Part shown: one piece after another, positions 19,296 through 59,121 of the stretch
How positions within the stretch are numbered: the first letter of the stretch is position 1
Layout: each line of letters starts with the position of its first letter
From: Marinobacter adhaerens HP15
GTDB lineage: Bacteria > Pseudomonadota > Gammaproteobacteria > Pseudomonadales > Oleiphilaceae
Assembly: GCF_000166295.1 (NCBI RefSeq)
Contig: NC_017506.1
Location: forward strand, 3,534,001 to 3,598,000
Length of the DNA: 64,000 nt
Reading direction: 5' to 3'
Program-made: the position numbers and the translations under genes
Notes under the pieces: generated by a model
Seen by the model: only the letters and a program-made list of their open reading frames with translations
Told to the model about the DNA's origin: nothing
Databases searched by the model: none

Positions 19296-19393
19296 GGGCT
19301 GGTAGTGCTGTTTGGGACTATCTTTCGCCAAGGATGGCGAAAGCTAAGCGCGCATGGATGCCTTGAGCGTGTCCCAAACAGCACTACCAGCCC
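19296..19393 (+). repeat. Palindromic GGA-hairpin repeat, copy A
   Basis: Perfect 23-base inverted arms at 19296-19318 and 19371-19393 enclose a 52-base core. The core has a hairpin with an 8-bp stem TTTCGCCA/TGGCGAAA and loop AGGA at 19323-19342, then AAGCG, then a second short hairpin GCATGGATGC with loop TGGA, then AGCGT before the right arm. The imperfect pairing continues outward. It sits between the convergent 3' ends of hinT and phoU. Copies B, C and D share this core but have different arms. Confidence 0.9.
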
Positions 19394-19416
19394 GCTTGCT
19401 CCCTCCAAAGCAAAAA

Positions 19417-20139
19417 TCAGCGTCCGACCACCTTCTCAGCTTCTTCCACCGGCGTATGACGAACGTCCTCGCCTTTGACCATGAAGATCACGTTCTCAGC
19501 AATGTTACATGCGTGGTCACCCACCCGCTCCAGGGCACGGAGCACCCACATTACGGACATGCACCGTGAGATGTTGCGGGTGTCTTCCATCATGAACGTC
19601 AGCAAGGTACGGGCCGCAGCCTGATATTCCTCATCGACACGCTTGTCTTCCTTCATGATCCGCAACGCCTGCTCGGAATCCAGCCGGGCAAAGGCATCCA
19701 GGGCATCGTGAAGCATGCTGAGCACGTGGGTGCCAATGTGGCGTACTTCCACATAGCCCCGCGGGGCCTGGCCCTCTTCCTGCAGCTTGATCGCCAGCTT
19801 GGCGATTTTCTTGGCCTCGTCGCCAACCCGCTCAAGGTCGGCCACCATCTTGATGACCGAGATCACCAGACGCAGATCCCGGGCCGTCGGCTGGCGACGG
19901 GCGATGATCAGGGTGGCTTCCTCGTCGATTTCCACTTCCATCCGGTCAACTTTCTTGTCGTTGGCACGGATTTCGTCAGCCAGATGACCATCGCCATCCA
20001 CCAGGGCCAGGATGGCATTATCGACCTGGGCCTCAACCATGCCGCCCATTTTGAGGAACTCGGTCTTGAGTTCCATCAGTTCGTCATTGAACTTGTGGGA
20101 GATGTGATCCCCGTAAACGTCGTCCTTCTTTGTAGGCAT
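19417..20139 (-). CDS. phoU: Phosphate signalling regulator PhoU
   Basis: A 240-residue all-helical protein with two PhoU repeats. It connects the PstSCAB transporter to the PhoR sensor and represses the Pho regulon when phosphate is plentiful. Typical segments: SHKFNDELMELKTEFLKMGG, VEIDEEATLIIARRQPTARDLR and MWVLRALERVGDHACNIAE. The start is the ATG at 20139 with GGAGAAG about nine bases upstream; a TTG start five codons earlier is less likely. It is the last gene of pstSCAB-phoU, 33 bases after pstB. Confidence 0.95.
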   Translation of the reverse strand: MPTKKDDVYGDHISHKFNDELMELKTEFLKMGGMVEAQVDNAILALVDGDGHLADEIRANDKKVDRMEVEIDEEATLIIARRQPTARDLRLVISVIKMVADLERVGDEAKKIAKLAIKLQEEGQAPRGYVEVRHIGTHVLSMLHDALDAFARLDSEQALRIMKEDKRVDEEYQAAARTLLTFMMEDTRNISRCMSVMWVLRALERVGDHACNIAENVIFMVKGEDVRHTPVEEAEKVVGR

Positions 20140-20172
20140 ACTGTTCTTCTCCAAAATTCCTCAGGTCCGGAA

Positions 20173-21060
20173 TCAGCCAAAACGGCCGGTGATGTAGGAC
20201 TCGGTCAGTTCATGTTCCGGCGAGGTGAATACCTTGTTGGTCTCGTTCACTTCAACCAGGTGTCCCAGGTGGAAGTAGGCCGTACGGTGAGATACCCGGG
20301 CCGCCTGCTGCATCGAGTGGGTCACGATAACGATCGTGTAGCTTTCGGACAGCTCGGCAATCAGCTCTTCCACTTTGGCGGTCGCAATAGGGTCCAGGGC
20401 CGAGCAGGGCTCATCCATCAGCACCACTTCCGGGCTGACGGCAATGGCACGGGCAATACACAGACGCTGTTGCTGGCCGCCGGACATGCCGGTTGCGTTG
20501 GCGTCCAGGCGATCCTTTACTTCTTCCCAGAGGCCGGCCTTGCGCAGGCTGTTTTCCACTATCTCGTCCAGATCCGACTTGCGGTTGGCCAGCCCGTGAA
20601 TCCGGGGGCCGTAAGCCACGTTGTCATAGATGGACTTGGGAAAGGGGTTCGGCTTCTGGAATACCATACCGACCCTGGCCCGCAGTTCGACCACATCCCG
20701 CTTGGGGTCGTAAATGTCGTGGTCGTCCAGTTGCAGGGAACCCTTCACACGACAGATATCGATACTGTCGTTCATGCGATTCAGGCAGCGCAGGAAGGTG
20801 GATTTGCCGCAACCGGATGGGCCGATGAAGGCAATGACTTCGTTACGGCCAATATCCAGGCTGATCTTCTTGATCGCGGGGGCATCCCCGTAGAATACCT
20901 CGACATCCCGAAGCTTGAACTTGGGGTCGTCCGAGTATGGCTTACCAACGGTCTTGCCTTCCTCGATGATGGTTTCAGCGGGCTTCGATTCCTGAACTGG
21001 CACGGCAACCTCGTCCGGTTGGGTAACTTCACTGGTAATGGTTGTATTCACACTATTCAT
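20173..21060 (-). CDS. pstB: Phosphate ABC transporter ATP-binding protein PstB
   Basis: A 295-residue ATPase that powers high-affinity phosphate uptake. Walker A is [21 protein letters not shown], the Q-loop [20 protein letters not shown], the ABC signature [15 protein letters not shown], Walker [14 protein letters not shown] and the H-loop [15 protein letters not shown]. It is about 40 residues longer than E. coli PstB because of an N-terminal extension rich in Glu, Pro and Val before [15 protein letters not shown]. The start is the ATG at 21060 with AAGGAGA upstream. It follows pstA by 11 bases. Confidence 0.97.
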
Positions 21061-21071
21061 CTTGATTCTCC

Positions 21072-22346
21072 TTACCACCGGCGCTCGAGACGTTTGCGCA
21101 TCCAGATGGCCAATGCGTTCATACTGATCAGGAAGGCCAGCAGCACCATGATGGCTGCCGACGCTCGCTCAATAAAGGCCAGCTCCGGGCTGCCCGCCCA
21201 CAGGAACACCTGCACAGGCAGCACCGTCGCCGAATCGAAGAACCCGTCGGGTACGTCCACAATGAACGCCACCATACCGATCAGCAGCAGCGGTGCGGTT
21301 TCACCGAGTGCCTGCGCCATTCCGATGATGGAACCGGTGAGCATGCCAGGCATGGCCAGCGGCAGCACATGGTGCAGAACTACCTGCATCTTGGATGCAC
21401 CGATACCTTCAGCGGCCTCGCGGATCGAGGGCGGAACGCTTTTGATCGCGGCCCGGCTGGAAATGATGATGGTCGGCAGCGTCATCAATGTCAGAACCAG
21501 ACCACCAACCACAGGAACCGAACGTGGCATCCCGAACAGGTTGATAAACACCGCGAGGCCAAGCAGACCAAAGATGATGGACGGCACCGCCGCCAGGTTG
21601 TTGATATTTACCTCGATGAAATCGGTGAATTTGTTCTGGGGCGCAAACTCTTCCAGATAGATCGCGGCCGCGACACCGATCGGGAACGACAATATCAGGG
21701 TGACGAACATCGTCAGCAGCGAACCGACAATCGCCCCGAGAATACCTGCCTTGGACGGATCACGGGAATCGCCGCCACTGAAGAACACATCATTGAACGA
21801 TGTCTCGATAATGCCCCGCTCCAGAAGATCATCTACCCAGGCTTTTTGCTGGTCGTTCAGCTTGATCGAGTAGGCATCATCCCCTGCATGCTTGACGTAG
21901 ACATCCACATCAGTGTGCGTGAGAAACGTCATGGTCTGGGTGGTACCCAACCACTCGGGATTTGCCTTCAGGGCATCCCGGAGCGTCACCGAGGCGTAAG
22001 GGTTGATCAGCTCGCGAACCTGTTTCCGGTCGTCCTCCGTTGCTCCGGGGATCTCCTTGATCAGCGCCTGAACCAGAGGCTCGACAAAATCGGCCATCTT
22101 GATCTGGCGCTCGTCCGTGGGATCATCCAGGTACATCATCTCACCATCCAACTGCACATCCATGGTGATGGTGGTCTTCACGAAGCCGGTATAACCCTTG
22201 CCGATGATATCGGTGAACAGGATTAACAGAGCCCCCAGGGCAATGGCGATGGCCAAGATGCCGTAGGCGCGGAAACGGCGTTCCTTACGGTAGCGGCGCT
22301 TGAGCGACTGGCGGACAATCTCCGCCTGTGAACGTTGGTCAGTCAT
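21072..22346 (-). CDS. pstA: Phosphate ABC transporter permease PstA (extended form)
   Basis: A 424-residue permease, about 130 residues longer than E. coli PstA. The first transmembrane helix ([19 protein letters not shown]) is followed by a large, probably periplasmic, insert of about 170 residues before the transport domain. The domain has [46 protein letters not shown] and the EAA-like loop [20 protein letters not shown]. This long form with a DUF3333-type N-terminus is common in marine gammaproteobacteria. The start is the ATG at 22346, overlapping the pstC end by 8 bases, so translation is probably coupled. Confidence 0.96.
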
Positions 22347-23727
22347 ACTGTTCCCGATATTTGCGTACGATTTTCAGTGCAATGACGTTGAGCAACAGGG
22401 TTGCCAGGAAGAGCATGGCGCCCAATGCAAAAGCGGCCAGCGTCTTGGCGCTGTCGAATTCCTGGTCACCGGTAAGCAGGGTCACGATTTGCACGGTCAC
22501 GGTGGTAACGGTTTCCAGCGGGTTGGCCGTCAGGTTGGCCGCCAGCCCTGCGGCCATGACCACGATCATGGTCTCGCCGATCGCCCGGGAGACCGCCAGC
22601 AGAATACCGCCCATGATGCCGGGCAGCGCAGCCGGGAAAATTACCTTCTTCATGGTCTCGGACTGAGTGGCGCCAAGTGCCAGAGAGCCATCACGCATAG
22701 CCTGTGGCACGGCATTGATCACGTCATCCGACAAGGAAGACACAAACGGAATGATCATGATGCCCATAACGGCACCGGCGGCCAGGGCACTCTGGGATGA
22801 CGCCTCGATACCCATGGAGGCGGCCACATCGCTGATAAATGGCGCTACGGTCAGGGCGGCGAAGAAGCCGTAAACCACGGTGGGAATACCCGCCAGCATT
22901 TCCAGCAACGGCTTGACCACACCGCGCACTTTTCTACCCGCGTATTCCGACAGGTAAATAGCCGACAGCAAGCCGACCGGCACGGCCACAACCATGGCAA
23001 TGGCAGAAATCAGCAGAGTGCCGGTAAACAGGGGGATCATGCCAAAGGCACCCTGGGAAGCTACCTGATCAGCACGAAGGGCGGTCTGAGGACTCCAGTG
23101 ACTACCAAAGATAAATTCGGTGAACGGGACCTTGCCAAAGAAACGAAAAGTCTCGAACGCCACCGAGAAAATGATTCCGACGGTCGTCAATATAGCCAGG
23201 GCTGCACAGGCGAAAAATACCCACTTGAGAATGGACTCAACCTGGGAACGGGCATTCAGCCGCGGACGGATTCTCAACCAGCCAAGGAAACCGGCGAGCA
23301 CGGCAACCGAGATAACAAGGCCAGACATCAGGAACCGACTCTGCGTGCGCAGCGTCTGTAAACGCTCGGCGGCCTCGGCTATCGGGGCTTCAACAAAGCC
23401 CGGAGGCAAGGCTCCGCTGGCCACATTGCTGATTTTGCTCAACAGCAGGCTCGCTTCACCGTCGGTCGCCGGAATCATGCCGTCCGGCAAACCACCAATA
23501 ACAATCAGCTGAATGACTTTGCCCTGAAATGCGGCCCATAAACCGAGCACGATGAGGGCCGGGATACCACTCCACAATGCCGCTCTGGCTCCGTAGTAGA
23601 AAGGGAGGGATTTGAGATGACGGATCCCACCCAGCGGCATCGCCAACGACCGGGAGCGAGCGTAACCGAGCCAATAGGCTACGATCGCCAGCACCAGAGT
23701 CAGTAATAAAAGATTAGCCGGTTGCAT
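22339..23727 (-). CDS. pstC: Phosphate ABC transporter permease PstC (extended form)
   Basis: A 462-residue permease, again well above the usual 310-320 residues, with extra N-terminal helices and a soluble segment (residues about 75-145) before the transport domain. The transport domain shows FIFGSHWSPQTALR, GLLSAIYLSEYAGRKVRG, LEMLAGIPTVVYGFFAALTV and the EAA-like loop MRDGSLALGATQSETMKKVIFP. With PstA it forms the channel through which PstS delivers phosphate. The start is the ATG at 23727. It is 137 bases downstream of pstS, separated by a hairpin that probably lowers its expression relative to pstS. Confidence 0.96.
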   Translation of the reverse strand: MQPANLLLLTLVLAIVAYWLGYARSRSLAMPLGGIRHLKSLPFYYGARAALWSGIPALIVLGLWAAFQGKVIQLIVIGGLPDGMIPATDGEASLLLSKISNVASGALPPGFVEAPIAEAAERLQTLRTQSRFLMSGLVISVAVLAGFLGWLRIRPRLNARSQVESILKWVFFACAALAILTTVGIIFSVAFETFRFFGKVPFTEFIFGSHWSPQTALRADQVASQGAFGMIPLFTGTLLISAIAMVVAVPVGLLSAIYLSEYAGRKVRGVVKPLLEMLAGIPTVVYGFFAALTVAPFISDVAASMGIEASSQSALAAGAVMGIMIIPFVSSLSDDVINAVPQAMRDGSLALGATQSETMKKVIFPAALPGIMGGILLAVSRAIGETMIVVMAAGLAANLTANPLETVTTVTVQIVTLLTGDQEFDSAKTLAAFALGAMLFLATLLLNVIALKIVRKYREQYD

Positions 23728-23808
23728 GAAAATTCCTGTATTCGACTTCGGATTGGCGCACAGTTTACAGATTCAGGTCCGCACTGGCACCGGATCGTCC
23801 AAACGTGC

Positions 23809-23840
23809 AAAAGGTGCGGGCCTCCAACGAGACCCGCACC
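23809..23840 (-). terminator. Attenuating terminator between pstS and pstC
   Basis: On the minus strand GGTGCGGG pairs with CCCGCACC around a 12-base loop and is followed by TTTTGC. Placed 25 bases after the pstS stop and inside the operon, it likely ends most transcripts and lets a fraction read into pstC, so the binding protein outnumbers the permease. Confidence 0.75.
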
Positions 23841-23864
23841 TCCATTCTTGACCGGACGACGGTG

Positions 23865-24905
23865 TTACTTGAGCTCGTCCAGGGTCAGGTTCGGCATGCT
23901 TTCTGCCTTATCCATCAGGTCCATCAGCGCAGCACGGGGCGGCACGATCAGGCCTACATCTTTCAGGTAGCCGTTCTGGCCCATGGCAGCGTTACTGATG
24001 AACTCGCCAATGTATTCCTGGATTCCCGGGACCACACCAACGTGGGCCTTCTTCACGTAGAAGAACAGTGAACGGGCCACCGGATACTCATCCGCAGCAA
24101 TGGCTTCGGCAGTCGGGATCATACCGTTCAGGGTGGCAGCCTGCAGACGGTCTGCGTTTTCTTCCAGGAAGCTGTAACCGAACACGCCGTACATGCCGGT
24201 ATCACCGATAAGCTTCTGCACGATCAGGTTGTCGTTCTCACCCGCTTCGATAAAGGCGCCGTCTTCACGAACGCTTTCGCAGATGGAGGCGTGCTCGTCC
24301 TTACCCAGATTGGCGGCTTCAGGCAGCTGGTCACAACCTGCGGCCAGGGCCAGCTCGTTGAAGGAGTCACGGGTACCGGAAGTCGGGGGCGGACCCATTA
24401 CACGAATCGGCTTGTTCGGCAGGCTGGAGTCAACATCGCTCCAGTTTTTGTTCGGGTTGGCTACCCACTCGCCGTTAACAGGCACTTTGGAGCCCAGGGC
24501 CAGGAACAGCTGCTCGAGGGTGATATCCAGGTTCTCGGCTTCTTTGGAGCTGGCGATCACAATGCCGTCAGAACCGATACGGAACTCGGTAATGTCTGTA
24601 ACGCCGTTGCTCTGGCAGAGCTCAAGCTCGGAGGTCTTCATACGGCGTGAAGCGTTGGTGATATCCGGGTGCTGGGTACCAATACCCTGACAGAACAACT
24701 TGAGACCGCCGCCAGAACCGGTGGATTCCAGCTTCGGAGTGCTGAAGTCGGTCTTGGTGCCAAAACGCTCGGCAACAACCGTGGCGAACGGATAAACGGT
24801 AGAGGAACCCACGATGCTGATGGTGTCACGGGCCATGGCCGGTGCAGACATGGCGGCAACGGAGCCAGCCAGTGCTACAGTCGCGAGTGCTTTGTTCAGT
24901 TTCAT
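23865..24905 (-). CDS. pstS: Phosphate ABC transporter substrate-binding protein PstS
   Basis: A 346-residue periplasmic phosphate-binding protein. A signal peptide (MKLNKALATVALAGSVAAMS then APAMA) precedes the mature start RDTISIVGSS. Ligand-site segments are SIVGSSTVYPFATVVAERFG, ESTGSGGGLKLFCQG and PTSGTRDSFNELALAAG. The start is the ATG at 24905, with GGAG nine bases upstream; a GTG one codon earlier is not needed. It is the first gene of pstSCAB-phoU and has a Pho box about 80-95 bases upstream. Confidence 0.96.
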   Translation of the reverse strand: MKLNKALATVALAGSVAAMSAPAMARDTISIVGSSTVYPFATVVAERFGTKTDFSTPKLESTGSGGGLKLFCQGIGTQHPDITNASRRMKTSELELCQSNGVTDITEFRIGSDGIVIASSKEAENLDITLEQLFLALGSKVPVNGEWVANPNKNWSDVDSSLPNKPIRVMGPPPTSGTRDSFNELALAAGCDQLPEAANLGKDEHASICESVREDGAFIEAGENDNLIVQKLIGDTGMYGVFGYSFLEENADRLQAATLNGMIPTAEAIAADEYPVARSLFFYVKKAHVGVVPGIQEYIGEFISNAAMGQNGYLKDVGLIVPPRAALMDLMDKAESMPNLTLDELK

Positions 24906-24982
24906 CACGTCAAGTCTCCATTATTCGGTTTGGACGTTGTGTCGGATGTGTTTTACCGATGTGTGCAGACTAATGGCACTCT

Positions 24983-25000
24983 GTGACAACTTTGTTACAG
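24983..25000 (-). promoter_or_regulatory. Pho box (PhoB binding site) upstream of pstS
   Basis: On the minus strand CTGTAACAAAGTTGTCAC consists of two 7-base PhoB half-sites (CTGTAAC, TTGTCAC) 11 bases apart in phase, matching the CTGTNAN-N4-CTGTNAN consensus. The second half can replace the -35, with an A/T-rich -10 candidate around ATTAGT downstream. This predicts induction of pstSCAB-phoU on phosphate starvation. Confidence 0.88.
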
Positions 25001-25102
25001 CTTCTGAAATATAGTCCGGAATGTTCAAATTTGCTTGCAGCGGTGCCTCAGCCCGCTACCATGCGTGTTAAAACAATTCCAGGCTCGCAAGAAGGCAGTA
25101 CT

Positions 25103-25507
25103 ATGACAGCGTTAGATGATGACAAACCCACGCCCCGTGGCGAACTCACCCTGCAGATTATCCCGCTCCCCTCAGACACCAATGCCAATGGCGACGTCTT
25201 CGCAGGCTGGCTGGTAAAACAGATGGATCTCGCCGCTGCGACCATGGCCGGACGGATTTCCCAGGGCCGTAACGCCACCGTGGCCATGGACCGGATGGAG
25301 TTCCTGTCACCGTTGCGAGTAGGTTCTCAGGTAGGTTGCTACTGCGAACTCGTCGATATCGGCCGCAGTTCCATGAAAATCAGCGTGGAAGTGTGGACCC
25401 TTGACCGCACTGCCAAGAATCCACGTAAGGTCACCGAGGGTCTGTTCGTCTACGTTGCCATTGATGAGCACGGTCGGATCCGCGAGGTGCCGGAGCAGGT
25501 TCTCTGA
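25103..25507 (+). CDS. Acyl-CoA thioesterase, hotdog fold (YciA-like)
   Basis: A 134-residue single hotdog-domain thioesterase that hydrolyses acyl-CoA. The family pattern is clear: PSDTNANGDVFAGWLVKQMDLAAATMA contains the conserved N-x-x-G-D-x-F-x-G-x-x-x-x-x-x-D catalytic helix, followed by TVAMDRMEFLSPLRVGSQVGCYCELVDIGRSSMKISVEVW. The start is the ATG at 25103 (MTALDDDKPTPRGELTL). It is divergent from pstS; its upstream region therefore shares the Pho box area, but no own regulation can be inferred. Chain-length preference is unknown. Confidence 0.9.
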   Translation: MTALDDDKPTPRGELTLQIIPLPSDTNANGDVFAGWLVKQMDLAAATMAGRISQGRNATVAMDRMEFLSPLRVGSQVGCYCELVDIGRSSMKISVEVWTLDRTAKNPRKVTEGLFVYVAIDEHGRIREVPEQVL

Positions 25508-25519
25508 CCCTGATCCGCT

Positions 25520-37737: not shown

Positions 37738-38808
37738 ATGAGCACCAACACAGAAATAACCCGGGCTGAAGACGCCGACGGCGGCATGGATTTGTTCGGC
37801 AAGTTCCTGTCGGTATGGGTGGCCCTGGCCATCATCGCCGGCGTGGCGCTCGGTCAGCTCGCACCAGTGGTACCCGAAACCCTGTCCCGTTTCGAGTACG
37901 CGCAGGTCTCCATCCCCATCGCCATTCTGATCTGGGCAATGATTTTCCCGATGATGGCGCAGATTGATTTCAGTGCAGTGGTCGGCGTCAGAAAAGAACC
38001 GAAAGGCCTGGCGATCACCACCATCGTCAACTGGCTGATCAAGCCTTTCACCATGTTTGCCATTGCCTGGTTTTTTCTGATGGTGGTGTTCGAGCCATGG
38101 ATCGCTCCGGGACTGGCCAGCGAATACCTGGCTGGCGCAATCCTGCTAGGCGCGGCGCCCTGCACCGCCATGGTGTTCGTCTGGAGTTACCTGACGAAAG
38201 GCGATGCCGCCTACACCCTGGTCCAGGTATCTCTCAACGACATCATCATGCTGTTCGCCTTCGCGCCAATTGTTGTTTTCCTGCTGGGCATTTCGGACAT
38301 ACAGGTGCCCTGGGATACCGTGCTGCTGTCCGTAGTCCTGTACATCGTGATTCCGCTAGCGGCCGGGTACCTGACCCGCCGCGCCCTGATCTCGCGGCAC
38401 GGTCAGCAATGGTACGACGACGTTTTCATGAAGCGCCTCAGCCCGGTCACCCCGGCGGCGCTGATCGTCACTCTGGTGTTGCTGTTCGCCTTCCAGGGTG
38501 AAGTGATCCTGAACAATCCCCTGCACATTGCACTGATCGCCGTGCCGCTGATTGTTCAGACTTTCCTGATTTTCTTCCTGGCCTACGGCTGGGCGAGGCT
38601 GTGGAAAGTCCGCCATTGCATCGCGGCGCCAGGCGCCATGATTGGTGCCAGCAACTTCTTCGAACTGGCCGTGGCCGCCGCCATCGCACTGTTCGGCCTG
38701 CAATCCGGCGCAGCGCTGGCAACCGTCGTCGGGGTTTTGGTGGAGGTACCTCTGATGCTGGTGCTCGTTCGCATCGCCAACAAGACCCGGGATAGGTTCC
38801 CGGCATAA
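37738..38808 (+). CDS. acr3: Arsenite efflux permease ACR3
   Basis: A 356-residue arsenite exporter of the BART superfamily with ten predicted transmembrane segments. The conserved Cys is in LLGAAPCTAMVFVWSYLTKGDAAYTL; other typical blocks are QVSLNDIIMLFAFAPIVVFLLGI and GAMIGASNFFELAVAAAIALFGLQSGAALATVVGV near the end. The start is the ATG at 37738 (MSTNTEITRAED); the frame is open upstream, but that region is the divergent promoter and the antisense of arsC. It pumps the arsenite made by the ArsC domain of its divergent neighbour. Confidence 0.95.
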   Translation: MSTNTEITRAEDADGGMDLFGKFLSVWVALAIIAGVALGQLAPVVPETLSRFEYAQVSIPIAILIWAMIFPMMAQIDFSAVVGVRKEPKGLAITTIVNWLIKPFTMFAIAWFFLMVVFEPWIAPGLASEYLAGAILLGAAPCTAMVFVWSYLTKGDAAYTLVQVSLNDIIMLFAFAPIVVFLLGISDIQVPWDTVLLSVVLYIVIPLAAGYLTRRALISRHGQQWYDDVFMKRLSPVTPAALIVTLVLLFAFQGEVILNNPLHIALIAVPLIVQTFLIFFLAYGWARLWKVRHCIAAPGAMIGASNFFELAVAAAIALFGLQSGAALATVVGVLVEVPLMLVLVRIANKTRDRFPA

Positions 38809-39764: not shown

Positions 39765-39955
39765 CAGGGTTGGGGTGGCCTTTCCAAAACTGTGCGGAGC
39801 CAAGGATGGCGGAGCCCAAGCGCCACATGGGTGAGGCCGAGCGCTTATGAAGCGAAGCTTCATGCGACAGCCGAACGACTGCAATCTGTGATTGCAGGCT
39901 GGACCCCGGAGGGGTGCCGCAAGGAGCGTGTTTTGGAAAGGCCACCCCAACCCTG
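39765..39955 (+). repeat. Palindromic GGA-hairpin repeat, copy B (long core)
   Basis: Perfect 26-base inverted arms at 39765-39790 and 39930-39955 enclose a 139-base core. The first part matches copies A, C and D (GCCAAGGATGGC with AGGA loop, AAGCG, then CACATGGGTG) and the last bases before the right arm are again AGCGT. An extra stretch of roughly 85 bases holds further hairpins: ATGAAGCGAAGCTTCAT near 39848, CTGCAATCTGTGATTGCAG near 39881 and ACCCCGGAGGGGT near 39903. It lies between convergent uppP and uvrD. Confidence 0.88.
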
Positions 39956-42245: not shown

Positions 42246-42341
42246 GGGCGGGGCTCTGTTCAGGACACGCTACGAGCACATCCATGTGCGCTTGGCTGTG
42301 GCCATCCCTGGCCACAGACAGTCCTGAACAGAGCCCCGCCC
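42246..42341 (-). repeat. Palindromic GGA-hairpin repeat, copy C
   Basis: Perfect 21-base arms at 42246-42266 and 42321-42341 enclose a 54-base core. On the minus strand the core contains a hairpin with a 9-bp stem and loop GGGA (inner part TGGCCAGGGATGGCCA), AAGCG, a second hairpin GCACATGGATGTGC (5-bp stem, loop TGGA) and AGCGT. The gap 42136-42375 holds this element and the uvrD promoter region. The core reads in the sense of the gabD transcript, whose stop is 35 bases upstream. Confidence 0.9.
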
Positions 42342-52408: not shown

Positions 52409-52785
52409 CAGCTAAGGTCGGCACCATGAGACTTGAGGTCGTCCAGGGCGCATTTTTCAAGGGCAGCCCGATGGGTAGCCCGCAGTCGGACCCTGGGGGC
52501 GCAGCCGGCTTCAAAGGCTTCCTGCCACCGGCCGGCACACAGGCACCAGCTATCGCCCGCTTTCAGGCCTTCGAAGCCGAATTCAGGCCTGGGGGTGCTG
52601 AGGTCGTTGCCCTGGGCTTTGGAGAATTCGAGGAATTCGTCGGTTACCACGGCGCAGACGGCGTGCAGGCCAAAATCATCCGGGCCGACGTTGCAGCAGC
52701 CATCGCGGTAAAAGCCGGTGATCGGGTCTTTGCCGCAGGTTTCGAGTTTTTCGCCAAGTACGTTTACCGATTCGGACATTTCCAT
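52408..52785 (-). CDS. DUF2237 family protein
   Basis: A 125-residue protein of the DUF2237 family, function unknown. Typical pattern: NVLGEKLETCGKDPITGFYRDGCC, HAVCAVVTDEFLEFSKAQGNDLSTPRPEFGF, GLKAGDSWCLCAGRWQEAFEAGCAPRV and a final ALEKCALDDLKSHGADLS. Several conserved Cys residues suggest metal or redox chemistry. The start is the ATG at 52785; a frame of 12 more codons reaches 52821. It overlaps tmcA by one base, so the two are coupled. Confidence 0.88.
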   Translation of the reverse strand: MEMSESVNVLGEKLETCGKDPITGFYRDGCCNVGPDDFGLHAVCAVVTDEFLEFSKAQGNDLSTPRPEFGFEGLKAGDSWCLCAGRWQEAFEAGCAPRVRLRATHRAALEKCALDDLKSHGADLS

Positions 52786-52871
52786 GTTTAAGACCCTTTC
52801 GCTCTCATGTTTTGATCGCAATTATGCGGGAGCGGTATCCGCTCTACCAGCAGGCCGTTACAATACCGGCC

Positions 52872-55145
52872 ATGCCGACCGAACCCCAAATTCCTGAGAC
52901 CACCAACCTCCCGGATTTCCTCACCGATGAGCAGCGGGCGATTATCACCGCGGGCTATGAGAATTCGGTGATTACCGCCGTAGCCGGCAGTGGCAAGACG
53001 TCGACGCTGGCCTGGCGAATCCGGTATCTGCTGGAACAGGGCCACGATCCGGACCGGATGCTGGTGTTGATGTTCAACCGCAGCGCCCGGGTGGATTTCG
53101 AGCGCAAGCTGCAGGAGGTGTGCGCCCGGAGCGGGCTGGCGCTGCCGGAGATACGGACGTATCACGCCATGGGCTTGAGGTTGTACAAGAGGTTTGTTCG
53201 GGAGGGCTATCTGCCGGGGTTTTCGGACAAAATCCTGACCGAGCAGGAGATCAGCTTCCAGGCCTGGCAGTTGACCCGACGGCTGGCGCCGGAGGATCTG
53301 GCGGATGAAATCCGGCGCAACAAGAAAGATTTTGTCGAGACGGCGACGGGGTTTATTGATCTGGTGAAAACAACGCTGTCGCCGGCGGAGATCGTGTTTG
53401 AGGAGCTGGGGTACTCGGACAAGCACAAATACCTCATTGACCTGTTCCACAGCTTTGAACAGTGGCGTAAGAGCCAGGGGCGGATCAGCTACGCCGACAT
53501 GCTGTACGAGCCGGTGATGGCGATTCACCAGAATCCGCCTTTGCAGCGGCTGGTAGGCAACAAGATGGATCTGATTCTGGTAGATGAGTACCAGGACACC
53601 AATGAAATCCAGCACCTGCTGCTGCGCTACGTGGCTGGAGACCGGGCCCGGGTGACGGTTGTTGGCGACCCGGACCAGACGATCTACGAGTTCCGGGGCG
53701 CAAAGCCCGAGTTCATTCTCAAGCGGTTCAGCGATGAGTTCGAAAGCCCGCTGGAGCAGACGCTCAGCTATACCTTCCGGTACGGCCATCGCGTCGCTTT
53801 GCTCGCCAACCATCTGATCTGTCACAACACCGGTCGCAAAGATGTGCTTTGCCATTCCCACGCTTCCACGCCCGGCACGGAGATCACCCTGCATCGGTCG
53901 GAAAGCGATGCCGATACCGTGCTGCAGATTCTTCAGGGCCAATCGGAACCGGCTCTGGCAGGCACGGCCATACTGTTCCGGGTCTGGAGTCAGAGTGTCC
54001 CTATCGAGCTGAAGTTGCTGGCTCGTCAGATTCCCTACCGGATTGATGCCGGCAAAGGCGCGCTGTTCAGCCGGGAAGTTCAGGCGATCACTGCCCTTCT
54101 GATGGTGGTGACCGGGAAACTGGAAAACCTGCCGGACGAGGATCGCCTGGAGCTGGCACGACAGCTGTTGCGCTTTCCTCATGTGGGTCTGAAAGAGCCG
54201 GAGCTGGAGCAGTTGGCGCGTTTCCTGGCAGGATTTTCCAGTGGCTGGCACGAGCGTCTGCTGGCGATGGACTTCGACGCGCTTGCGCCCATGGCCGCCC
54301 GCAAGCTCAGGAAACTCGGCGAAGTGCTTGCCCAACTGCACAGCTACGGAGGTCCGGTTGCAGGACTGATCAGTGTCTATGCCGAGCACACTGATCTTTA
54401 CGAGGGCATCCGCAGCCTGGCGCTGACGCATGAGAGTGCCGAGGAACGGATCGATACGATACAAGGATTCCGGCAGTACCTTAAAAGCCTTGATGTCACA
54501 GCTGAAGGCGCCCTGGAGCACCTGAAAACCCTCAAGCAACAGGCGGGTGAAAAACAGCAGGGTGGGGTGCTGCTCTCAACGATTCACCGCACCAAGGGTC
54601 TGGAATGGCCAACAGTTATCATTCCCGGACTGCAGGAGAAATACCTGCCGTACAGCCCCCGCCCCCAGGACAATGCCAGAGCATTTCTGGAAAGCGAGCG
54701 ACGGCTGCTGTATGTGGCCATGACACGCACACGCCAGCAGCTTCACCTGATCACCCGACCGGCCAGCAAGCAACCGCACCTGGACGGCGATCTGGGCCCA
54801 AGCCGTTTCGTGGAAGAGTGCTGCTTTGAGCTTGCCGAGGAATTCGGTCGCTGGCTGGATGAGCGATCTCCGGCAGAATCATCAACCACTCGGTTAACTG
54901 CCCCCCTGACACCGGTCAGCCAGCGTTACGCCGACCGGGAGAGCGTCACCCTTGAGGGCCAGGCGGCAACATTCGAAAACTCAACGGAACCACTCTGGCA
55001 TCAAAAACGTCTTGGCCACGCGATCTTTGGTCCCGGCTCGGTGGTCGCCGAAGATGAGAATTCTTTCGAGGTACATTTCGACAACGGCGAGGTGCTTAAC
55101 TTCAGTAAAAAAAGCGCGCATCTGTATTTTTCCGCTCTGGCCTGA
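52872..55145 (+). CDS. UvrD/Rep-family ATP-dependent helicase (second in window)
   Basis: A 757-residue SF1 helicase distinct from uvrD at 40-42 kb. Motifs: FLTDEQRAIITAGYENSVITAVAGSGKTSTLAWR (Q-motif and Walker A), YHAMGLRLYKRF, LVDEYQDTNEIQHLLL (motif II), VVGDPDQTIYEFRGAKPEFI (III), SYTFRYGHRV (IV), LLSTIHRTKGLEWPTVIIPG (V) and LLYVAMTRTRQQLHLI (VI). The C-terminal 40 residues (LGHAIFGPGSVVAEDENSF then EVHFDNGEVLNF) are a Tudor-like domain as in UvrD/PcrA. The start is the ATG at 52872; ATG at 52824 is possible and the binding sites are weak. It is divergent from the DUF2237 gene. Its specific role is unknown. Confidence 0.9.
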   Translation: MPTEPQIPETTNLPDFLTDEQRAIITAGYENSVITAVAGSGKTSTLAWRIRYLLEQGHDPDRMLVLMFNRSARVDFERKLQEVCARSGLALPEIRTYHAMGLRLYKRFVREGYLPGFSDKILTEQEISFQAWQLTRRLAPEDLADEIRRNKKDFVETATGFIDLVKTTLSPAEIVFEELGYSDKHKYLIDLFHSFEQWRKSQGRISYADMLYEPVMAIHQNPPLQRLVGNKMDLILVDEYQDTNEIQHLLLRYVAGDRARVTVVGDPDQTIYEFRGAKPEFILKRFSDEFESPLEQTLSYTFRYGHRVALLANHLICHNTGRKDVLCHSHASTPGTEITLHRSESDADTVLQILQGQSEPALAGTAILFRVWSQSVPIELKLLARQIPYRIDAGKGALFSREVQAITALLMVVTGKLENLPDEDRLELARQLLRFPHVGLKEPELEQLARFLAGFSSGWHERLLAMDFDALAPMAARKLRKLGEVLAQLHSYGGPVAGLISVYAEHTDLYEGIRSLALTHESAEERIDTIQGFRQYLKSLDVTAEGALEHLKTLKQQAGEKQQGGVLLSTIHRTKGLEWPTVIIPGLQEKYLPYSPRPQDNARAFLESERRLLYVAMTRTRQQLHLITRPASKQPHLDGDLGPSRFVEECCFELAEEFGRWLDERSPAESSTTRLTAPLTPVSQRYADRESVTLEGQAATFENSTEPLWHQKRLGHAIFGPGSVVAEDENSFEVHFDNGEVLNFSKKSAHLYFSALA

Positions 55146-55305
55146 AACGACCTCGGGGTCGTAAAGGTCAACTGGGTACAATTGCGGACGTAACAATCCG
55201 TATCATTTTTTTGTTTTTTTTGGCCTACTGGCCTAAATTCCGGGTATACAAGCACTTTTCATGTGGAAGTGCGGTACCACAACGACAATGAACAGGAGGT
55301 TCTGC

Positions 55306-56514
55306 ATGAACGTCATGCGTCCGATTTCCGCGGCTGTACTGGCCGCTACCCTGGCAACCCCGGCCATGGCCGATCGTCAGGAAACCGTTTACATCAACCC
55401 GTTTGCCGGTTTTCAGCTGTTTGACGACAAGCGCGATCTGAGCGAAACCGGCACCTTCGGCGTTGGTGTGGAATACCGCTTCCGTCCCCACTGGTCGGTA
55501 GAGGCGCTTTACTCACGTGCCGATGCAGACCGCAAATACGTGCCGGGCGAATCGGAATTTGATGAAGTCCGGGTTGACGGTACCTACTACTTTGCAGGCC
55601 CGGACGAAGCCTGGAACCCATACGTGTCTCTGGGCGCAGGCCATGCAGACTTTGGTTCGGACAACAGTGGCGTTCGCACCGCGGGCAGCAATCATGACGA
55701 AACCCGAGTGAACGTGGGTACCGGCTTCCGCTACAACATCAACGACGCCGTATCACTGCGCGGCGACCTCCGTGAATTCCACGGCATCGATGAGAGCACC
55801 TTCGACACTCAGGTCTCTCTGGGCATCAGTTTTGCGTTTACCCGCACCGTGGCACAAGCGGCTCCGGCGCCTGCGCGCCCGGCAGATGCAGATGGTGATG
55901 GCGTGCCGGATTCACGGGACCAGTGCCCCGGCACCCCGGCAGGCGCAACCGTTGACAGCAATGGCTGCGAGCCGGATTCGGATCGCGACGGCGTGGCCGA
56001 CAGTCGTGACCAGTGCCCGGACACACCGCGCGGTGCGGAAGTAAACAGCCGTGGATGTGAGCTGGACAGCGATAATGACGGCGTGGTCAACAGCAAAGAC
56101 CAGTGCCCGGATACCACCGCTGGCGCGGACGTGGATGCATCCGGCTGTGAAGGTGTAACTGAAACCATCCAGACCTTCACCATCGAAGTCCAGTTCCCGA
56201 CCAACAGCTCGGTCATCGGCAATGCCTACGATGAGGAAATTCGTCGCGTCGCAGACTTTATGCAGGAAAACCCGGAAACCATCGTGGAAATTGCCGGCCA
56301 CTCTGACAGCCGCGGTGACGCGGACTACAACCAGTTCCTGTCCCAGCGTCGCGCTGAAGCAGTTGCCGGCCGTCTGACCGGGCCTCTGGGTGTTGATCCG
56401 GCACGAGTGGAAGCCGTAGGTTACGGTGAGGAGCAGCCGATCGCGTCCAACAACACAGCGGACGGCCGAGCTGCCAACCGCCGGGTTGAAGCGCGCATTC
56501 AGGTTCGCCGTTAA
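55306..56514 (+). CDS. OmpA-family outer-membrane protein with thrombospondin type 3 repeats
   Basis: A 402-residue protein. Signal peptide MNVMRPISAAVLAATLATP is followed by AMA. Residues about 25-180 form an eight-strand OmpA-like barrel (ETVYINPFAGFQLFDDK, FGVGVEYRFRPHWSVEALYS). Three calcium-binding TSP3 repeats follow (DADGDGVPDSRDQCPGTPAG, DSDRDGVADSRDQCPDTPRG, DSDNDGVVNSKDQCPDTTAG), then an OmpA C-terminal peptidoglycan-binding domain (EIAGHSDSRGDADYNQFLSQ, AVGYGEEQPIASNNT). It anchors the outer membrane to the cell wall. The start is the ATG at 55306 with AGGAGG upstream. A strong terminator follows. Confidence 0.94.
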   Translation: MNVMRPISAAVLAATLATPAMADRQETVYINPFAGFQLFDDKRDLSETGTFGVGVEYRFRPHWSVEALYSRADADRKYVPGESEFDEVRVDGTYYFAGPDEAWNPYVSLGAGHADFGSDNSGVRTAGSNHDETRVNVGTGFRYNINDAVSLRGDLREFHGIDESTFDTQVSLGISFAFTRTVAQAAPAPARPADADGDGVPDSRDQCPGTPAGATVDSNGCEPDSDRDGVADSRDQCPDTPRGAEVNSRGCELDSDNDGVVNSKDQCPDTTAGADVDASGCEGVTETIQTFTIEVQFPTNSSVIGNAYDEEIRRVADFMQENPETIVEIAGHSDSRGDADYNQFLSQRRAEAVAGRLTGPLGVDPARVEAVGYGEEQPIASNNTADGRAANRRVEARIQVRR

Positions 56515-56540
56515 TTTAAGGTTTTACCTGAGTGGTTTGA

Positions 56541-56566
56541 AAAGGCGCCTTCGGGCGCCTTTTTTG
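56541..56566 (+). terminator. Rho-independent terminator of the OmpA-family gene
   Basis: AAAGGCGCC TTCG GGCGCCTTTTTT is a UUCG-capped GC-rich stem with a T tail, about 25 bases after the stop. Confidence 0.93.
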
Positions 56567-56590
56567 TTTCTGAAAAAATGCGAGGAACCG

Positions 56591-57070
56591 ATGCTCAGAG
56601 CCATGGCACTGATCTTCACGCTCTCTGTTCTGGCAGTGCCGGCGCAGTCCCAGGTTTTTCGCTGCGAAAAAGACGGCAATACGGTGTTCTCGGACCAGCC
56701 CTGCGGCGAGGATGCTGAATCGCTTGAGCTACGGGATAACCGCATTGGCGGCAGTTTCAATCAGAACCTCCCGGTGCAGGAGTCCCCTGATCCAGAAGAA
56801 CAGACAGAAGAGTCAGAACAAGAAAAAGAGGCCGGCACATGCCGTTTTATCAACTCCACCGATTTGCGTCGTTATCTGGTTCGCGAGCAGGTGGTGCGGG
56901 GCATGACCCGGGACAACGTGCGCCGTGCTTTCGGCAACCCTCCTGAAACCTACACCAGCCCCCAGGAAGTCTGGATCTACCAGACCCGCTATTATGGCGC
57001 GCTCTATGAGCTGACCTATGTGTATTTCAGGGATGGCTGTGTTGAACGGGTTGAGTACCGGAAACCCTGA
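56591..57070 (+). CDS. Secreted DUF4124 / SmpA-like protein
   Basis: A 159-residue protein with a signal peptide (MLRAMALIFTLSVLAVPAQS). Residues 20-50 match DUF4124 (QVFRCEKDGNTVFSDQPCGEDAESL). After an acidic linker, the C-terminal 80 residues resemble the BamE/SmpA-OmlA fold: VRGMTRDNVRRAFGNPPETYTSPQEVWIYQTRYY and LTYVYFRDGCVERVEY. It may thus be an envelope protein, but no function is established. The start is the ATG at 56591 with GAGGAACC upstream. Its 3' end overlaps the convergent methyltransferase gene by 44 bases. Confidence 0.78.
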   Translation: MLRAMALIFTLSVLAVPAQSQVFRCEKDGNTVFSDQPCGEDAESLELRDNRIGGSFNQNLPVQESPDPEEQTEESEQEKEAGTCRFINSTDLRRYLVREQVVRGMTRDNVRRAFGNPPETYTSPQEVWIYQTRYYGALYELTYVYFRDGCVERVEYRKP

Positions 57071-58301
57071 CCGCATCGAGCAGGAGGTTGCGGGGTGTCA
57101 GTGAACGATCGCAGAAATGCCCCAGCCTGACCCTGTACCCCTGCTCTTCCAGAAAGAGCGCGTAATCCAAGACCATCCAGAGCTCCAGAGGACGCCGGAA
57201 CAGATGCCTGACCAGCTCATGGCGGCGAACCTCGGCCAGCCGTTGCACGCCAAACGCCTGCCAGTGATCAAAGTCCACCGTATCGGGTAATCGGAGCTGC
57301 TTTTTTGCCGCCGCCCAACGGCAAAAGGCGGGAAAGCCTTCGTTCAAAAGGCGGGGCGGATTCGAAGGAACCGGCAGATACTCATCACACCCACGAAGTT
57401 GCCGCTGCAGACCATCAAATCCCAGGCGCCACTGGCTGACAAGGCGGGTCTGTTCCCTCACCCGGGCCGGTGCCGTCACGGTTTCCTGAACCGCAAGCCG
57501 AAGATCGTTACGGCTCGGCTGCAGCGCTTTTGGGTGATCCGCCGCCCGCTGTGAAAGCGGCCGGTAGTGTTCCATCTCAGTGAGGTGGTAGCAGCAGGGC
57601 GAGACACTCAATCTTGGCAACCCGGCTTCACTGCCTCGCTTCAGCAACTGTCGGTGCAGATCGCCACAAGCATGCAGTGCAACACCGTGGTGACGGCTGG
57701 GAAGCGACAAATCCTCTGCCATGACATCCTGGCAGCGGATCGACACGGGATCTCCGAACTGTTGTGCCAGTCGGTTGCCATCGCGCACCAGCTCCGGATT
57801 CCACTCGAAACCCTGTATCTCACCGGGGCAAAACGGCGCCAGTGTCCGGGACAGATGGCCCTTACCACAACACCAGTCCAGGGCGGGGTGTTCCAGCGGT
57901 ATCAGTGCCGCCGTAAAGGCGCCCGACTGCAGGCGTTTCCGACCGGGCATATCCGTGGCCCGGATTTCCGGGAGCGTCGCCTCTGATGCCTTTTCGGGTG
58001 CCGGCAACAGCTCCGGCAGTTGAACCATGTCGGCGTAACGGTCGAGGGACGGCAACCATGAGGCAACCCGAGCCGCCAACTCAACCGGGCTGCCATCCAG
58101 TTGCTGGCATTCCCCATCGGTTAGTTCCGCCAGCATGGTGCCCAGTTCCGGATAAAGACGCGCCCAGGCAGGCTCCGGCGTCATGAACGGCGCCGGTTGC
58201 CAGAACTCGGAATGCTGTACCAGCCAGTCGTTCAGCTGCTGCCAATGCTGGTAAAAAGATTCCGCGCCGTGGTGTAAACTCGCCGCCGGAGGTAACGTCA
58301 T
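57027..58301 (-). CDS. SAM-dependent methyltransferase (GSTCD-like, unknown substrate)
   Basis: A 424-residue protein with a methyltransferase domain around residues 145-265: ALDWCCGKGHLSRTLAPFCPGEIQGFEWN (SAM loop), RCQDVMAEDL and GVALHACGDLHRQLLKRGSE, then LSVSPCCYHLTEMEHYRPLS. This DWCCGKGH block is shared with the methyltransferase half of animal GSTCD. The long flanking regions are not recognised. The start is the ATG at 58301, which shares a CATG with the ATG of the divergent yjtD-like gene. Its 3' end overlaps the DUF4124 gene by 44 bases. Substrate unknown. Confidence 0.8.
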   Translation of the reverse strand: MTLPPAASLHHGAESFYQHWQQLNDWLVQHSEFWQPAPFMTPEPAWARLYPELGTMLAELTDGECQQLDGSPVELAARVASWLPSLDRYADMVQLPELLPAPEKASEATLPEIRATDMPGRKRLQSGAFTAALIPLEHPALDWCCGKGHLSRTLAPFCPGEIQGFEWNPELVRDGNRLAQQFGDPVSIRCQDVMAEDLSLPSRHHGVALHACGDLHRQLLKRGSEAGLPRLSVSPCCYHLTEMEHYRPLSQRAADHPKALQPSRNDLRLAVQETVTAPARVREQTRLVSQWRLGFDGLQRQLRGCDEYLPVPSNPPRLLNEGFPAFCRWAAAKKQLRLPDTVDFDHWQAFGVQRLAEVRRHELVRHLFRRPLELWMVLDYALFLEEQGYRVRLGHFCDRSLTPRNLLLDAVRVSGTQPVQHSHP

Positions 58302-59028
58302 GCAACTGGCCTTTGTACTTGTTGAACCCAAGGTTCCGGAAAACGTCGGTGCAGCCGCCCGTGCGCTGTGCACCATGGGTTTCGGCGAACTGTGGTTGGT
58401 CAATTCCGATCTGCACACCCGCCCGGAAGCCCACTGGCTGGCCCATGGCAGCGACCATATCCTGGACAATGCGCGCATTTTCCCCGATCTGGCTGCGGTA
58501 AGAAACTCCGTAGACCTGCTGATGGGGACCTCCGCCAAGACCCGGCATCAGCGCCAGGATTGGCACGGCCCCTCAGATCTGCGGAAGGTTCTGGCCACGA
58601 AGGGTGCGTCCGTGGCAACCGCAGCACTGGTGTTTGGCCGGGAAGATCGCGGGCTGTCCAATGAAGAGCTGGCTCTCTGCGATCTGTTAACCGGCATCCC
58701 CATGAAGGTCACCTACCCCTCCCTGAACCTTGCCCAGTCGGTGATGCTCTACGCCTGGGAAATGTCCGGGCTTTCGGATGCCATGGATATCCGGCATGAA
58801 CCTGCCGATGACAATCGTCTTGGCGCGCTCCGCGGCCGGCTCGAAACCTTACTACCGGAGCTGGACACTCCGCCGGAAGGGAAACTGTCCCAGTGGGTCT
58901 TTGAGCGGCTGCCGTTATTGTCTGATCGGGATATCGGGTTTGTTCATACGCTGTGCTCGAACATTGAGCGCGCTGTGGATTGCAGATCTCAGTCGCGCTC
59001 GAATTCCAAGGCGGAGCAGGACGGATAG
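58300..59028 (+). CDS. yjtD: tRNA/rRNA methyltransferase, SpoU/TrmJ family (LasT/YjtD-like)
   Basis: A 242-residue SPOUT methyltransferase. Family blocks: FVLVEPKVPENVGAAARALCTMGFGELWLVN, HGSDHILDNARIF, ALVFGREDRGLSNEELALCDLLTGIPM and the knot segment YPSLNLAQSVMLYAWEM. The arrangement and C-terminal half (WVFERLPLLSDRDIGFVHTLCSNIERAV) match E. coli LasT/YjtD better than TrmJ. The start is the ATG at 58300 with CGGAGG upstream; it overlaps the start of the divergent methyltransferase. The last codons (KAEQDG and the stop) lie inside palindromic repeat copy D, so the element supplies part of the C-terminus. Confidence 0.9.
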   Translation: MQLAFVLVEPKVPENVGAAARALCTMGFGELWLVNSDLHTRPEAHWLAHGSDHILDNARIFPDLAAVRNSVDLLMGTSAKTRHQRQDWHGPSDLRKVLATKGASVATAALVFGREDRGLSNEELALCDLLTGIPMKVTYPSLNLAQSVMLYAWEMSGLSDAMDIRHEPADDNRLGALRGRLETLLPELDTPPEGKLSQWVFERLPLLSDRDIGFVHTLCSNIERAVDCRSQSRSNSKAEQDG

Positions 59029-59121
59029 CCCCTCCCGGGATACGCTGTGAATACGTCCATGTACGCTCGACGAAAACATCCATGTTTTCGACGCTCCCGG
59101 GAGGGGCTATCCGCCCTGCTC
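59014..59121 (-). repeat. Palindromic GGA-hairpin repeat, copy D
   Basis: 27-base arms with one mismatch at 59014-59040 and 59095-59121 (19 inner bases perfect, 59022-59040 and 59095-59113) enclose a 54-base core. On the minus strand: hairpin GAAAACATGGATGTTTTC (loop TGGA), AGCG, second hairpin TACATGGACGTA, then CAGCGTA. The left arm contains the stop codon of the yjtD-like gene. It lies between the convergent yjtD-like and dadA-like genes. Confidence 0.9.

What the first reader, a model, noticed from the sequence alone, without database searches (positions are those of the whole stretch)
19296..59121. Family of four long palindromes with variable arms and a conserved two-hairpin core
Copies at 19296-19393, 39765-39955, 42246-42341 and 59014-59121 have arms of 21 to 27 bases that are perfectly or almost perfectly self-complementary, yet unrelated between copies. 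Inside, three of the four cores are 52-54 bases long and share the order: hairpin with GGA loop, (A)AGCG, short CATGGA hairpin, AGCGT. Conserved core plus covarying arms means the stem as a structure, not its sequence, is maintained, either by selection or by how the element is made (for example inverted duplication of flanking bases on insertion). I do not recognise it as ERIC, REP/BIME or a known MITE, but I cannot exclude a described Marinobacter repeat.
Basis: partly seen in the sequence, partly recalled or inferred. Interest (0 to 1): 0.78.

Follow-up and report, generated by a model that had tools for sequence, protein, structure and literature searches.

The report
Repeated CsrA-type RNA hairpin elements
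The four palindromes belong to a family of at least 86 dispersed copies in this marine bacterium; each looks like a segment that makes an RNA hairpin with two loops of the kind bound by the global regulator CsrA, and, oddly, copies share the inner part but each has its own, different, well-matched stem.

Summary
Confirmed and extended. The palindromes belong to a family of at least 86 copies in this Marinobacter-type genome, 3 to 136 in 18 congeners. One strand (the GGA strand) folds into a stem of about 28 bp carrying two hairpins; 84 of 86 copies have two CANGGANG loops, the CsrA/RsmA signature. Rfam TwoAYGGAY (RF01731) hits 34 copies, all on that strand, two over its cut-off. So the class is known, and CsrA binding was proposed in 2014 (PMC4333381). 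Not found in print in my searches: stems are nearly independent of core relatedness, and at orthologous sites half are unchanged while a third are largely replaced, both arms together. Stem mismatches are strand-asymmetric (G.U 66, A.C 9), pointing to folding of the GGA strand. Copies within 400 bp form divergent doublets, 62 of 62 in five genomes. There is no preferred gene strand, no Y1-transposase link and hardly any U-tract. Expression and CsrA binding are untested. Inverted duplication of the target is not supported.

The parts
19296..19318 (+). copy 1, 5' arm (GGA strand is +)
   Evidence: 23 perfect pairs with 19371-19393
19319..19370 (+). copy 1, 52-nt core with two GGA hairpins
19329..19336 (+). 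copy 1, hairpin A loop CAAGGATG (CANGGANG)
19353..19360 (+). copy 1, hairpin B loop CATGGATG
19371..19393 (+). copy 1, 3' arm
39765..39790 (+). copy 2, 5' arm (26 perfect pairs)
39791..39929 (+). copy 2, core with intact hairpin A and a hairpin B interrupted by about 80 extra nt
   Evidence: same kind of insert at G000:C1:544237 and in the G009 orthologue of C1:2567131
39801..39808 (+). copy 2, hairpin A loop CAAGGATG
39930..39955 (+). copy 2, 3' arm
42246..42266 (-). copy 3, 3' arm of the GGA strand
   Evidence: 21 perfect pairs with 42321-42341
42267..42320 (-). copy 3, 54-nt core
42279..42286 (-). copy 3, hairpin B loop CATGGATG
42303..42310 (-). copy 3, hairpin A loop CAGGGATG
42321..42341 (-). 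copy 3, 5' arm of the GGA strand
59014..59041 (-). copy 4, 3' arm of the GGA strand (19 perfect pairs within it); overlaps the last codons of the upstream + strand gene (58300-59028)
59042..59093 (-). copy 4, 52-nt core
59054..59061 (-). copy 4, hairpin B loop CATGGACG (the base after GGA is not T, so the A before the first N has no partner)
59077..59084 (-). copy 4, hairpin A loop CATGGATG
59094..59121 (-). copy 4, 5' arm of the GGA strand

Best explanation
Each palindrome is a copy of a high-copy Marinobacter form of the TwoAYGGAY kind of RNA element. The GGA strand is the working strand: as a single strand it folds into a stem of about 28 bp capped by two short hairpins with GGA in the loop, 23-25 nt apart, a layout that would suit a CsrA/RsmA dimer. 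I think it is transcribed and that the copies together bind (titrate) the cell's CsrA/RsmA, or recruit it to transcript ends. The core is what copies have in common by descent; the stem is locus-specific and is re-made or exchanged, often in large steps, with the two arms kept matched. Shown here by computation: copy number, anatomy, pairing, strand-specific mismatch bias, near-independence of stem and core, doublet geometry, presence of two csrA genes. Inferred: transcription, CsrA binding, titration. The process that re-makes stems is unknown.
For: CANGGANG occurs at least twice in 84 of 86 copies, exactly twice in 83 (the model that found the copies was built from such copies, so this is partly ascertained). 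The base after GGA in hairpin B is not T in 35 of 84 although the A before the first N stays, so the loop is ANGGAN and not just a CATGGATG palindrome. This fits the SELEX consensus RUACARGGAUGU (passage in PMC7652899). RF01731 hits 34 copies, all on the GGA strand. Two csrA genes are present. On the GGA strand G.U mismatches outnumber their mirror image A.C 63:15 and 59:11 and 66:9; purine-purine outnumber pyrimidine-pyrimidine 51:14, 41:12 (summed) and 51:1. The direction is the same in both chromosomal orientations and in tandem, convergent and divergent gene contexts. Stem difference hardly depends on core difference: 13.8 of 28 for near-identical cores, 14.6 for others, 14.6 expected from column composition.
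Against: No strand preference relative to tandem genes: 19 same, 19 opposite in this genome; 13 and 17 in other species. Sigma70-like scores upstream do not exceed shuffles of the same sequence (p 0.77), though they exceed those downstream (p 1e-5). No expression data. In two genomes of other families the mismatch bias was not seen (4:3 from only 6 parsed copies) and in G010 it was weak (23:12, p 0.09), both with less exact boundaries. Only 6 of 30 loci of those two other-family genomes gave two strict CANGGANG sites; by eye most others keep GGA in a loop but with a flipped closing pair or a 5-nt loop, and one (L291) has GGC in hairpin B. The first Y of AYGGAY is often a purine here. Near-identical cores do have slightly more similar arms (p 0.06 here, 0.02 in G009).
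Confidence: 0.6

Rival explanations
1. A mobile DNA element recognised as a folded single DNA strand (in the manner of REP/IS200-type or attC substrates): the GGA strand folds as DNA, a recombinase moves or copies the core, and the CsrA-like loops are a coincidence or a by-product.
For: Copy number varies from 3 to 136 between congeners; neighbours within 400 bp form doublets of one geometry only, 62 of 62; three orthologous copies lie in inverted orientation; folding of one DNA strand would give the same G.T/A.C asymmetry; near-identical cores sit in very different stems.
Against: No Y1 transposase (PF01797) in 7 of 19 congeners (own genome counted), including this genome (86 copies) and G009 (94); rank correlation with copy number 0.08, p 0.74. 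80 of 86 copies have orthologous flanks in G009 and 78 of these 80 have a hit there, so movement is not frequent. The loop signature matches CsrA sites. Other recombinase families were not searched.
Confidence: 0.22
2. Bidirectional transcription terminators or mRNA 3'-end stabilisers placed between convergent genes.
For: 30 of 86 copies and 37 of 90 in other species lie between convergent genes; all gaps of 100 bp or more in the latter loci, element-bearing ones included, are convergent in 39 of 202.
Against: T runs of 4 or more within 25 nt after the stem: 1 of 149 on the GGA strand, 26 of 149 on the other; 12 and 5 copies lie between divergent genes; conserved GGA loops are not needed for a terminator.
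Confidence: 0.1
3. Ordinary slow compensatory evolution of a vertically inherited structured RNA, with no special process that re-makes stems.
For: Intermediate loci exist (12 of 75 orthologous pairs with 2-6 left-arm changes); covariation is pervasive; near-identical cores have slightly more similar arms.
Against: 38 of 75 orthologous pairs have 0-1 left-arm changes while 25 have 7 or more of 28, with flank identity little different (96.7% for 31 loci with at most one change per arm, 95.7% for the 25); 25 element-free intergenic regions of the window are 85-100% identical to G009; near-identical cores would have to outlive almost complete turnover of their stems.
Confidence: 0.2

Closest known systems
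TwoAYGGAY RNA, Rfam RF01731 (Weinberg 2010, PMC2864571; CsrA-binding proposal in PMC4333381; passages read of both)
   Same: Two GGA-loop hairpins under a long outer stem on the same strand; 34 of 34 RF01731 hits in this genome are these copies, two over the cut-off; multi-copy in several other gammaproteobacterial families.
   Different: 32 of the 34 hits score below the gathering cut-off; loop is ANGGAN rather than AYGGAY; stem differs between copies with the same core. In G297, by eye, the stems of several copies are alike.
RsmX/Y/Z and CsrB/C sponge RNAs
   Same: Repeated GGA hairpins that fit CsrA/RsmA dimers (PMC7652899 and PMC4333381, passages read; otherwise recalled).
   Different: Those are single-locus sRNAs with many sites each (recalled); here 86 or more loci with two sites each. 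RF00166 (PrrB_RsmZ) gives no match over its cut-off in 29 genomes of the order; RsmY, CsrB and CsrC were not searched genome-wide.
REP / REPIN elements with RAYT transposases
   Same: Dispersed intergenic palindromes, often in inverted doublets (REPIN anatomy recalled).
   Different: No Y1 transposase in this genome or in G009; stem sequence not shared between copies.
ERIC, BIME, MITEs
   Same: Palindromic intergenic repeats (recalled).
   Different: Strings CACCAAA and AGGCTAG are enriched on one side, but no fixed terminal repeat or target duplication was established; one empty site was compared. No direct comparison with these families was run.

Membership tests
TwoAYGGAY (RF01731) | score at or above Rfam gathering cut-off (43 bits) | tested here: inconclusive
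   2 of 34 hits over it (44.7, 43.6); the other 32 between 21.7 and 42.9; all 34 overlap the copies on the GGA strand (150 of 203 candidates scored)
TwoAYGGAY (RF01731) | two hairpins with AYGGAY loops | tested here: inconclusive
   two ANGGAN loops in 84 of 86 copies; first N is a pyrimidine in 45 of 84 (hairpin A) and 63 of 84 (hairpin B), last N in 82 and 79 of 84
TwoAYGGAY (RF01731) | long outer stem | tested here: met
   stem of about 28 bp; an outer stem is part of the Rfam model
TwoAYGGAY (RF01731) | tandem G.A in one hairpin stem (as stated in PMC4333381) | tested here: inconclusive
   A.G followed by G.A or G.G in hairpin A of 39 of 86 copies
CsrA-binding RNA | binds CsrA/RsmA | not testable with these tools
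   sequence signature only; csrA present twice
REPIN/RAYT | cognate Y1 (RAYT) transposase in the genome | tested here: not met
   0 matches to PF01797 in this genome and in G009
MITE | terminal repeats and target-site duplication at an empty site | tested here: inconclusive
   one empty site (copy 2) compared, not clean, no duplication seen by eye
intrinsic terminator | U-tract after the stem | tested here: not met
   T4 within 25 nt in 1 of 149 (GGA strand) and 26 of 149 (other strand)
integron attC site | fixed outer core sites RYYYAAC / GTTRRRY (recalled) | tested here: not met
   the arm base next to the core is C in 41, A in 34, G in 6, T in 3 of 84 copies, so AAC/GTT is not fixed

The most novel reading that the evidence does not exclude
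A dispersed CsrA/RsmA-binding RNA system of about 90-150 loci per genome in which a short conserved core is propagated or homogenised between loci while every locus builds its own complementary stem, replaced as a whole from time to time: a repeat whose structure, not its sequence, is what is copied, and which may act as a many-locus sponge in place of, or beside, an RsmZ-like RNA.
Probability: 0.3. Interest if true: 0.82.

Novelty: new variant of a known kind. Interest (0 to 1): 0.62.

Why it matters
If the GGA strand is transcribed and binds CsrA, some Marinobacter genomes would carry on the order of 150-300 CsrA sites spread through the genome, a different architecture from a few sRNA sponges. 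Independently of function, a repeat whose core is shared between loci while its 28-bp stems are very different yet well matched, and are often either kept or largely replaced at orthologous sites, is hard to explain by ordinary transposition or by slow compensation, and gives a tractable system (hundreds of copies, many sequenced species) to study how long palindromes are renewed.

Tried and rejected
Rfam scan of the window at gathering threshold: only a cspA thermoregulator, nothing on the palindromes. Sigma70-like promoters upstream of the GGA strand: no excess over shuffles of the same sequence. Source of replaced stems: for the 25 orthologous loci with 7 or more left-arm differences, the nearest arm elsewhere in the two genomes differs at 4-12 of 28; the closest (4) belong to inverted doublets at the same locus (1443069/1443346, 3553295), the rest (5-12) lie in the range of ordinary paralogues in this genome (5-13), so no donor was found. 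Y1 transposase as the agent: rejected. Virus and plasmid collections: no exact match to a core 26-mer in viral contigs, none to a 22-mer of the copy 2 insert, no blastn match of copy 3 or of the core of copy 2 in the plasmid collection. Inverted duplication of target: not supported. A first automatic parse of 20 stretches around RF01731 hits returned one element only and was replaced by folding at the reported coordinates. Literature: listings of searches showed no paper on these repeats in Marinobacter; the 11 papers were not opened, one search was swamped by 14,415 loose matches, and supplements could not be read, so the 2010 alignments were not checked.
Full report
What is there. The four palindromes exist as described and fold with z-scores of -8 to -14. 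A pattern search of the window's own genome gave 10 copies; a covariance model (R1) built from 11 copies gave 88 rows at E<=1, of which one is the opposite strand of copy 4 and one a partial hit; 86 copies remain, 84 if two near-duplicates are dropped. Only 150 of 2161 first-look candidates were scored, so 86 is a lower bound. Copy 2 is not among the 86 because its core is interrupted (14 bits). The close relative used below, G009, has a contig of the same length (768,252) as NZ_PSSW01000001.1, M. flavimaris LMG 23834. From memory, the contig lengths fit M. adhaerens HP15 for the window; this was not verified.

Anatomy. Read on the GGA strand each element is: 5' arm of about 28 nt; usually TGT or CGT; hairpin A with loop ANGGAN; a linker such as CAAGCG or CGAGCC; hairpin B with loop ANGGAN; a short piece ending GCG plus one base; 3' arm. 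For 84 distinct copies own arms pair at 94-100% at positions 1-15, 90-96% at 16-20 and 76-88% at 21-28, then fall to 44% at 29 and near the level of swapped arms from 30 on. Swapped arms pair at 28-75% over positions 1-28, except at position 2, which is always A. A set of 84 copies on the contigs (G009's own locus left out, 6 copies too near an end dropped) shows a similar profile. Formal pair counts on the 11-copy alignment: 94.2% of cells paired against 67.7% in shuffles, 114 doubly changed cells against 34.4, and a steep loss when the partner is slid by one column (the structure was taken from one of these copies, so the slide control favours it).

The loops. 83 of 86 copies contain exactly two CANGGANG sites, one three, two only one; first-to-second spacing is 23-25 nt in all 84. 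The search model was built from such copies, which favours this count. In hairpin B the base after GGA is T in 49, C in 30, A in 4 and G in 1 of 84, while the A before the first N stays. So the pair that would make a longer palindrome is not kept but the CsrA-type signature is. A review gives the SELEX consensus RUACARGGAUGU with GGA in hairpin loops (PMC7652899, passage). The genome has two csrA genes. In two genomes of other families (G021, G023) strict CANGGANG twice was found in 6 of 30 loci. By eye, two of the 30 were wrongly centred and could not be read; of the other 28, 27 have two GGA strings in place, many with a flipped closing pair or a 5-nt loop, and one (L291) has GGC in hairpin B. 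In G021 several copies share the same core and have different stems.

Known family. Rfam RF01731, TwoAYGGAY, matches 34 places in the genome at E<=10 (150 of 203 candidates scored); all 34 overlap these copies and lie on the GGA strand; two exceed the cut-off. Of 14 control genomes one gave a match at that E-value and none over the cut-off. In 274 gammaproteobacteria 18 have a match at E<=0.001 and 13 one over the cut-off, with at most nine candidates scored per genome. Weinberg 2010 lists the motif in a table (PMC2864571, passages). [quoted passage not shown] So the finding is a Marinobacter form of a named but functionally open RNA class.

Which strand works. In stems, G.U mismatches read on the GGA strand outnumber A.C, their mirror image, 63:15 in this genome and 59:11 in G009 copies that are not near-identical to orthologues, and 66:9 in the multi-species set. 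Purine-purine against pyrimidine-pyrimidine is 51:14 and 41:12 (summed) and 51:1. Copies with fewer than 16 paired positions in the inner arm were left out of these counts (1 of 84 in this genome; 2 of 84). The direction of the bias is the same in both chromosomal orientations and in the tandem-same, tandem-opposite, convergent and divergent contexts, with small numbers in some, so neither replication nor read-through of neighbours explains it simply. G010 gave 23:12 (p 0.09) and the other families 4:3, both with less exact boundaries. This points to folding of the GGA strand as a single strand; it does not by itself separate RNA from single-stranded DNA, nor selection from a transcription-linked mutation bias.

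Context. With simple codon-score gene calls, the 86 copies lie between convergent genes in 30 cases, tandem genes in 38 (19 on the gene strand, 19 opposite), divergent in 12, inside a called frame in 4, one neighbour missing in 2. In 90 places of other species: 37 convergent, 13 and 17 tandem, 5 divergent, 6 inside, 12 at an edge; all gaps of 100 bp or more in those loci, element-bearing ones included, are 39 convergent of 202. Window neighbours look like housekeeping or metabolic genes: HinT-like, PhoU, UppP, UvrD, a succinate-semialdehyde-type dehydrogenase, a TrmJ-type methyltransferase, a D-amino-acid dehydrogenase. There is hardly any U-tract (1 of 149 on the GGA strand, 26 of 149 on the other) and no promoter signal above shuffles, although upstream scores exceed downstream ones (p 1e-5). 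Downstream of the stem on the GGA strand CACCAA (28 of 149, 7.2 in shuffles) and AGGCTA (25, 2.0) are enriched. Two listed copies within 400 bp have CATCC strands + then -, that is GGA strands pointing apart: 9 in this genome, 15 in G009, 23 in G010, 6 in G021, 9 in G023, 62 of 62. Among RF01731 hits of the class search, three of four such pairs (G186, G297 twice) have this geometry; one (G118, both below the cut-off) is head to tail.

Stem and core come apart. Pairs of copies whose cores differ at no more than one position have arms differing at 13.8 of 28 on average; other pairs of equal core length 14.6; column composition alone predicts 14.6. In G009: 13.6, 14.2, 14.3. A small similarity remains (p 0.06, 0.02). 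In the multi-species set eight identical cores have a median arm difference of 12 of 28, with a minimum of 4. At orthologous sites in G009, 80 of 86 copies have both flanks; two of these have no hit inside, three are in inverted orientation, leaving 75 pairs (two G009 copies are each used twice because of the near-duplicates). One of the two without a hit (C1:2567131) is in fact occupied by an interrupted copy. Left-arm differences: 38 pairs have 0-1, 12 have 2-6, 25 have 7 or more of 28; 270 arm positions changed on both sides with pairing in both genomes, 129 on one side, 28 on both without pairing in both. Some of the 25 are mis-matched members of inverted or lost doublets (1443069/1443346, 3553295). 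In five (2431193, 2472741, 3917906, 2612120, 3449255) the core is closest to its own orthologue with no tie among 93 others while the arms are 7-15 of 28 different. In three of six alignments shown (2472741, 2686812, 3502200) the change covers arms plus some tens of bases outside while sequence further out is near identical; the other three, at doublets or doublet/single sites, differ over longer stretches. Ordinary intergenic regions of the window are more alike: 25 without an element are 85-100% identical to G009, 24 of them 91.9% or more.

Reading. I take the element to be an RNA of the TwoAYGGAY kind, working as CsrA/RsmA binding sites in large number. The evolutionary pattern needs more: cores are related between loci, stems hardly, and stems often change in large steps with both arms together. 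Possible routes are exchange with diverged alleles of other strains, local re-templating of one arm from the other, or movement of cores between pre-existing palindromes. I could not choose between them. A Y1 transposase is not the agent: absent from 7 of 19 congeners including two with 86 and 94 copies, rank correlation 0.08; other recombinases were not searched. Copy numbers from 3 to 136 in 18 congeners (at most 139 candidates scored each; 146 rows from 150 scored in G010, so larger in truth) show gain and loss. RF00166 (RsmZ) has no match over its cut-off in 29 genomes, which leaves room for these elements as the sponge, but RsmY, CsrB and CsrC were not searched genome-wide.

Noticed in passing
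window about 39830-39912; L083 (C1:544237); L181 (G009 orthologue of C1:2567131): About 80 extra nt (with CATGAAGCTTCGCTTCAT) sit at a similar place in hairpin B of three copies; at C1:2567131 they are present in G009 and absent here, so this may be a nested element. A longer string of it also occurs in L405.
   Followed up: partly
G000 C1:2431193 onward (about 2.43-2.83 Mb): 24 of 85 chromosomal copies lie within 400 kb; random placement gave a mean maximum of 14 and never more than 22 in 2000 trials.
   Followed up: partly
G000 C1:1033 and C1:1015879; C2:91261 and C1:4077603: Two near-identical pairs of copies with their near flanks: a repeated chromosomal stretch, and a copy shared by the 187-kb second contig and the chromosome.
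   Followed up: no
window 5826-6236, strand -: cspA thermoregulator RNA (RF01766), 79.4 bits, just over its cut-off of 78.
   Followed up: no
window 37738-37746: G009 carries about 725 bp more here than the own genome.
   Followed up: no
doublet spacers, e.g. L086: Overlapping strings of ATCCGACCTAC, reminiscent of box C repeats (recalled), are enriched upstream of the GGA strand in 10-13 of 149 copies.
   Followed up: no
L375: The core 26-mer also occurs in a contig binned as Rhodopirellula (a MAG); probably a mis-binned Marinobacter contig.
   Followed up: no
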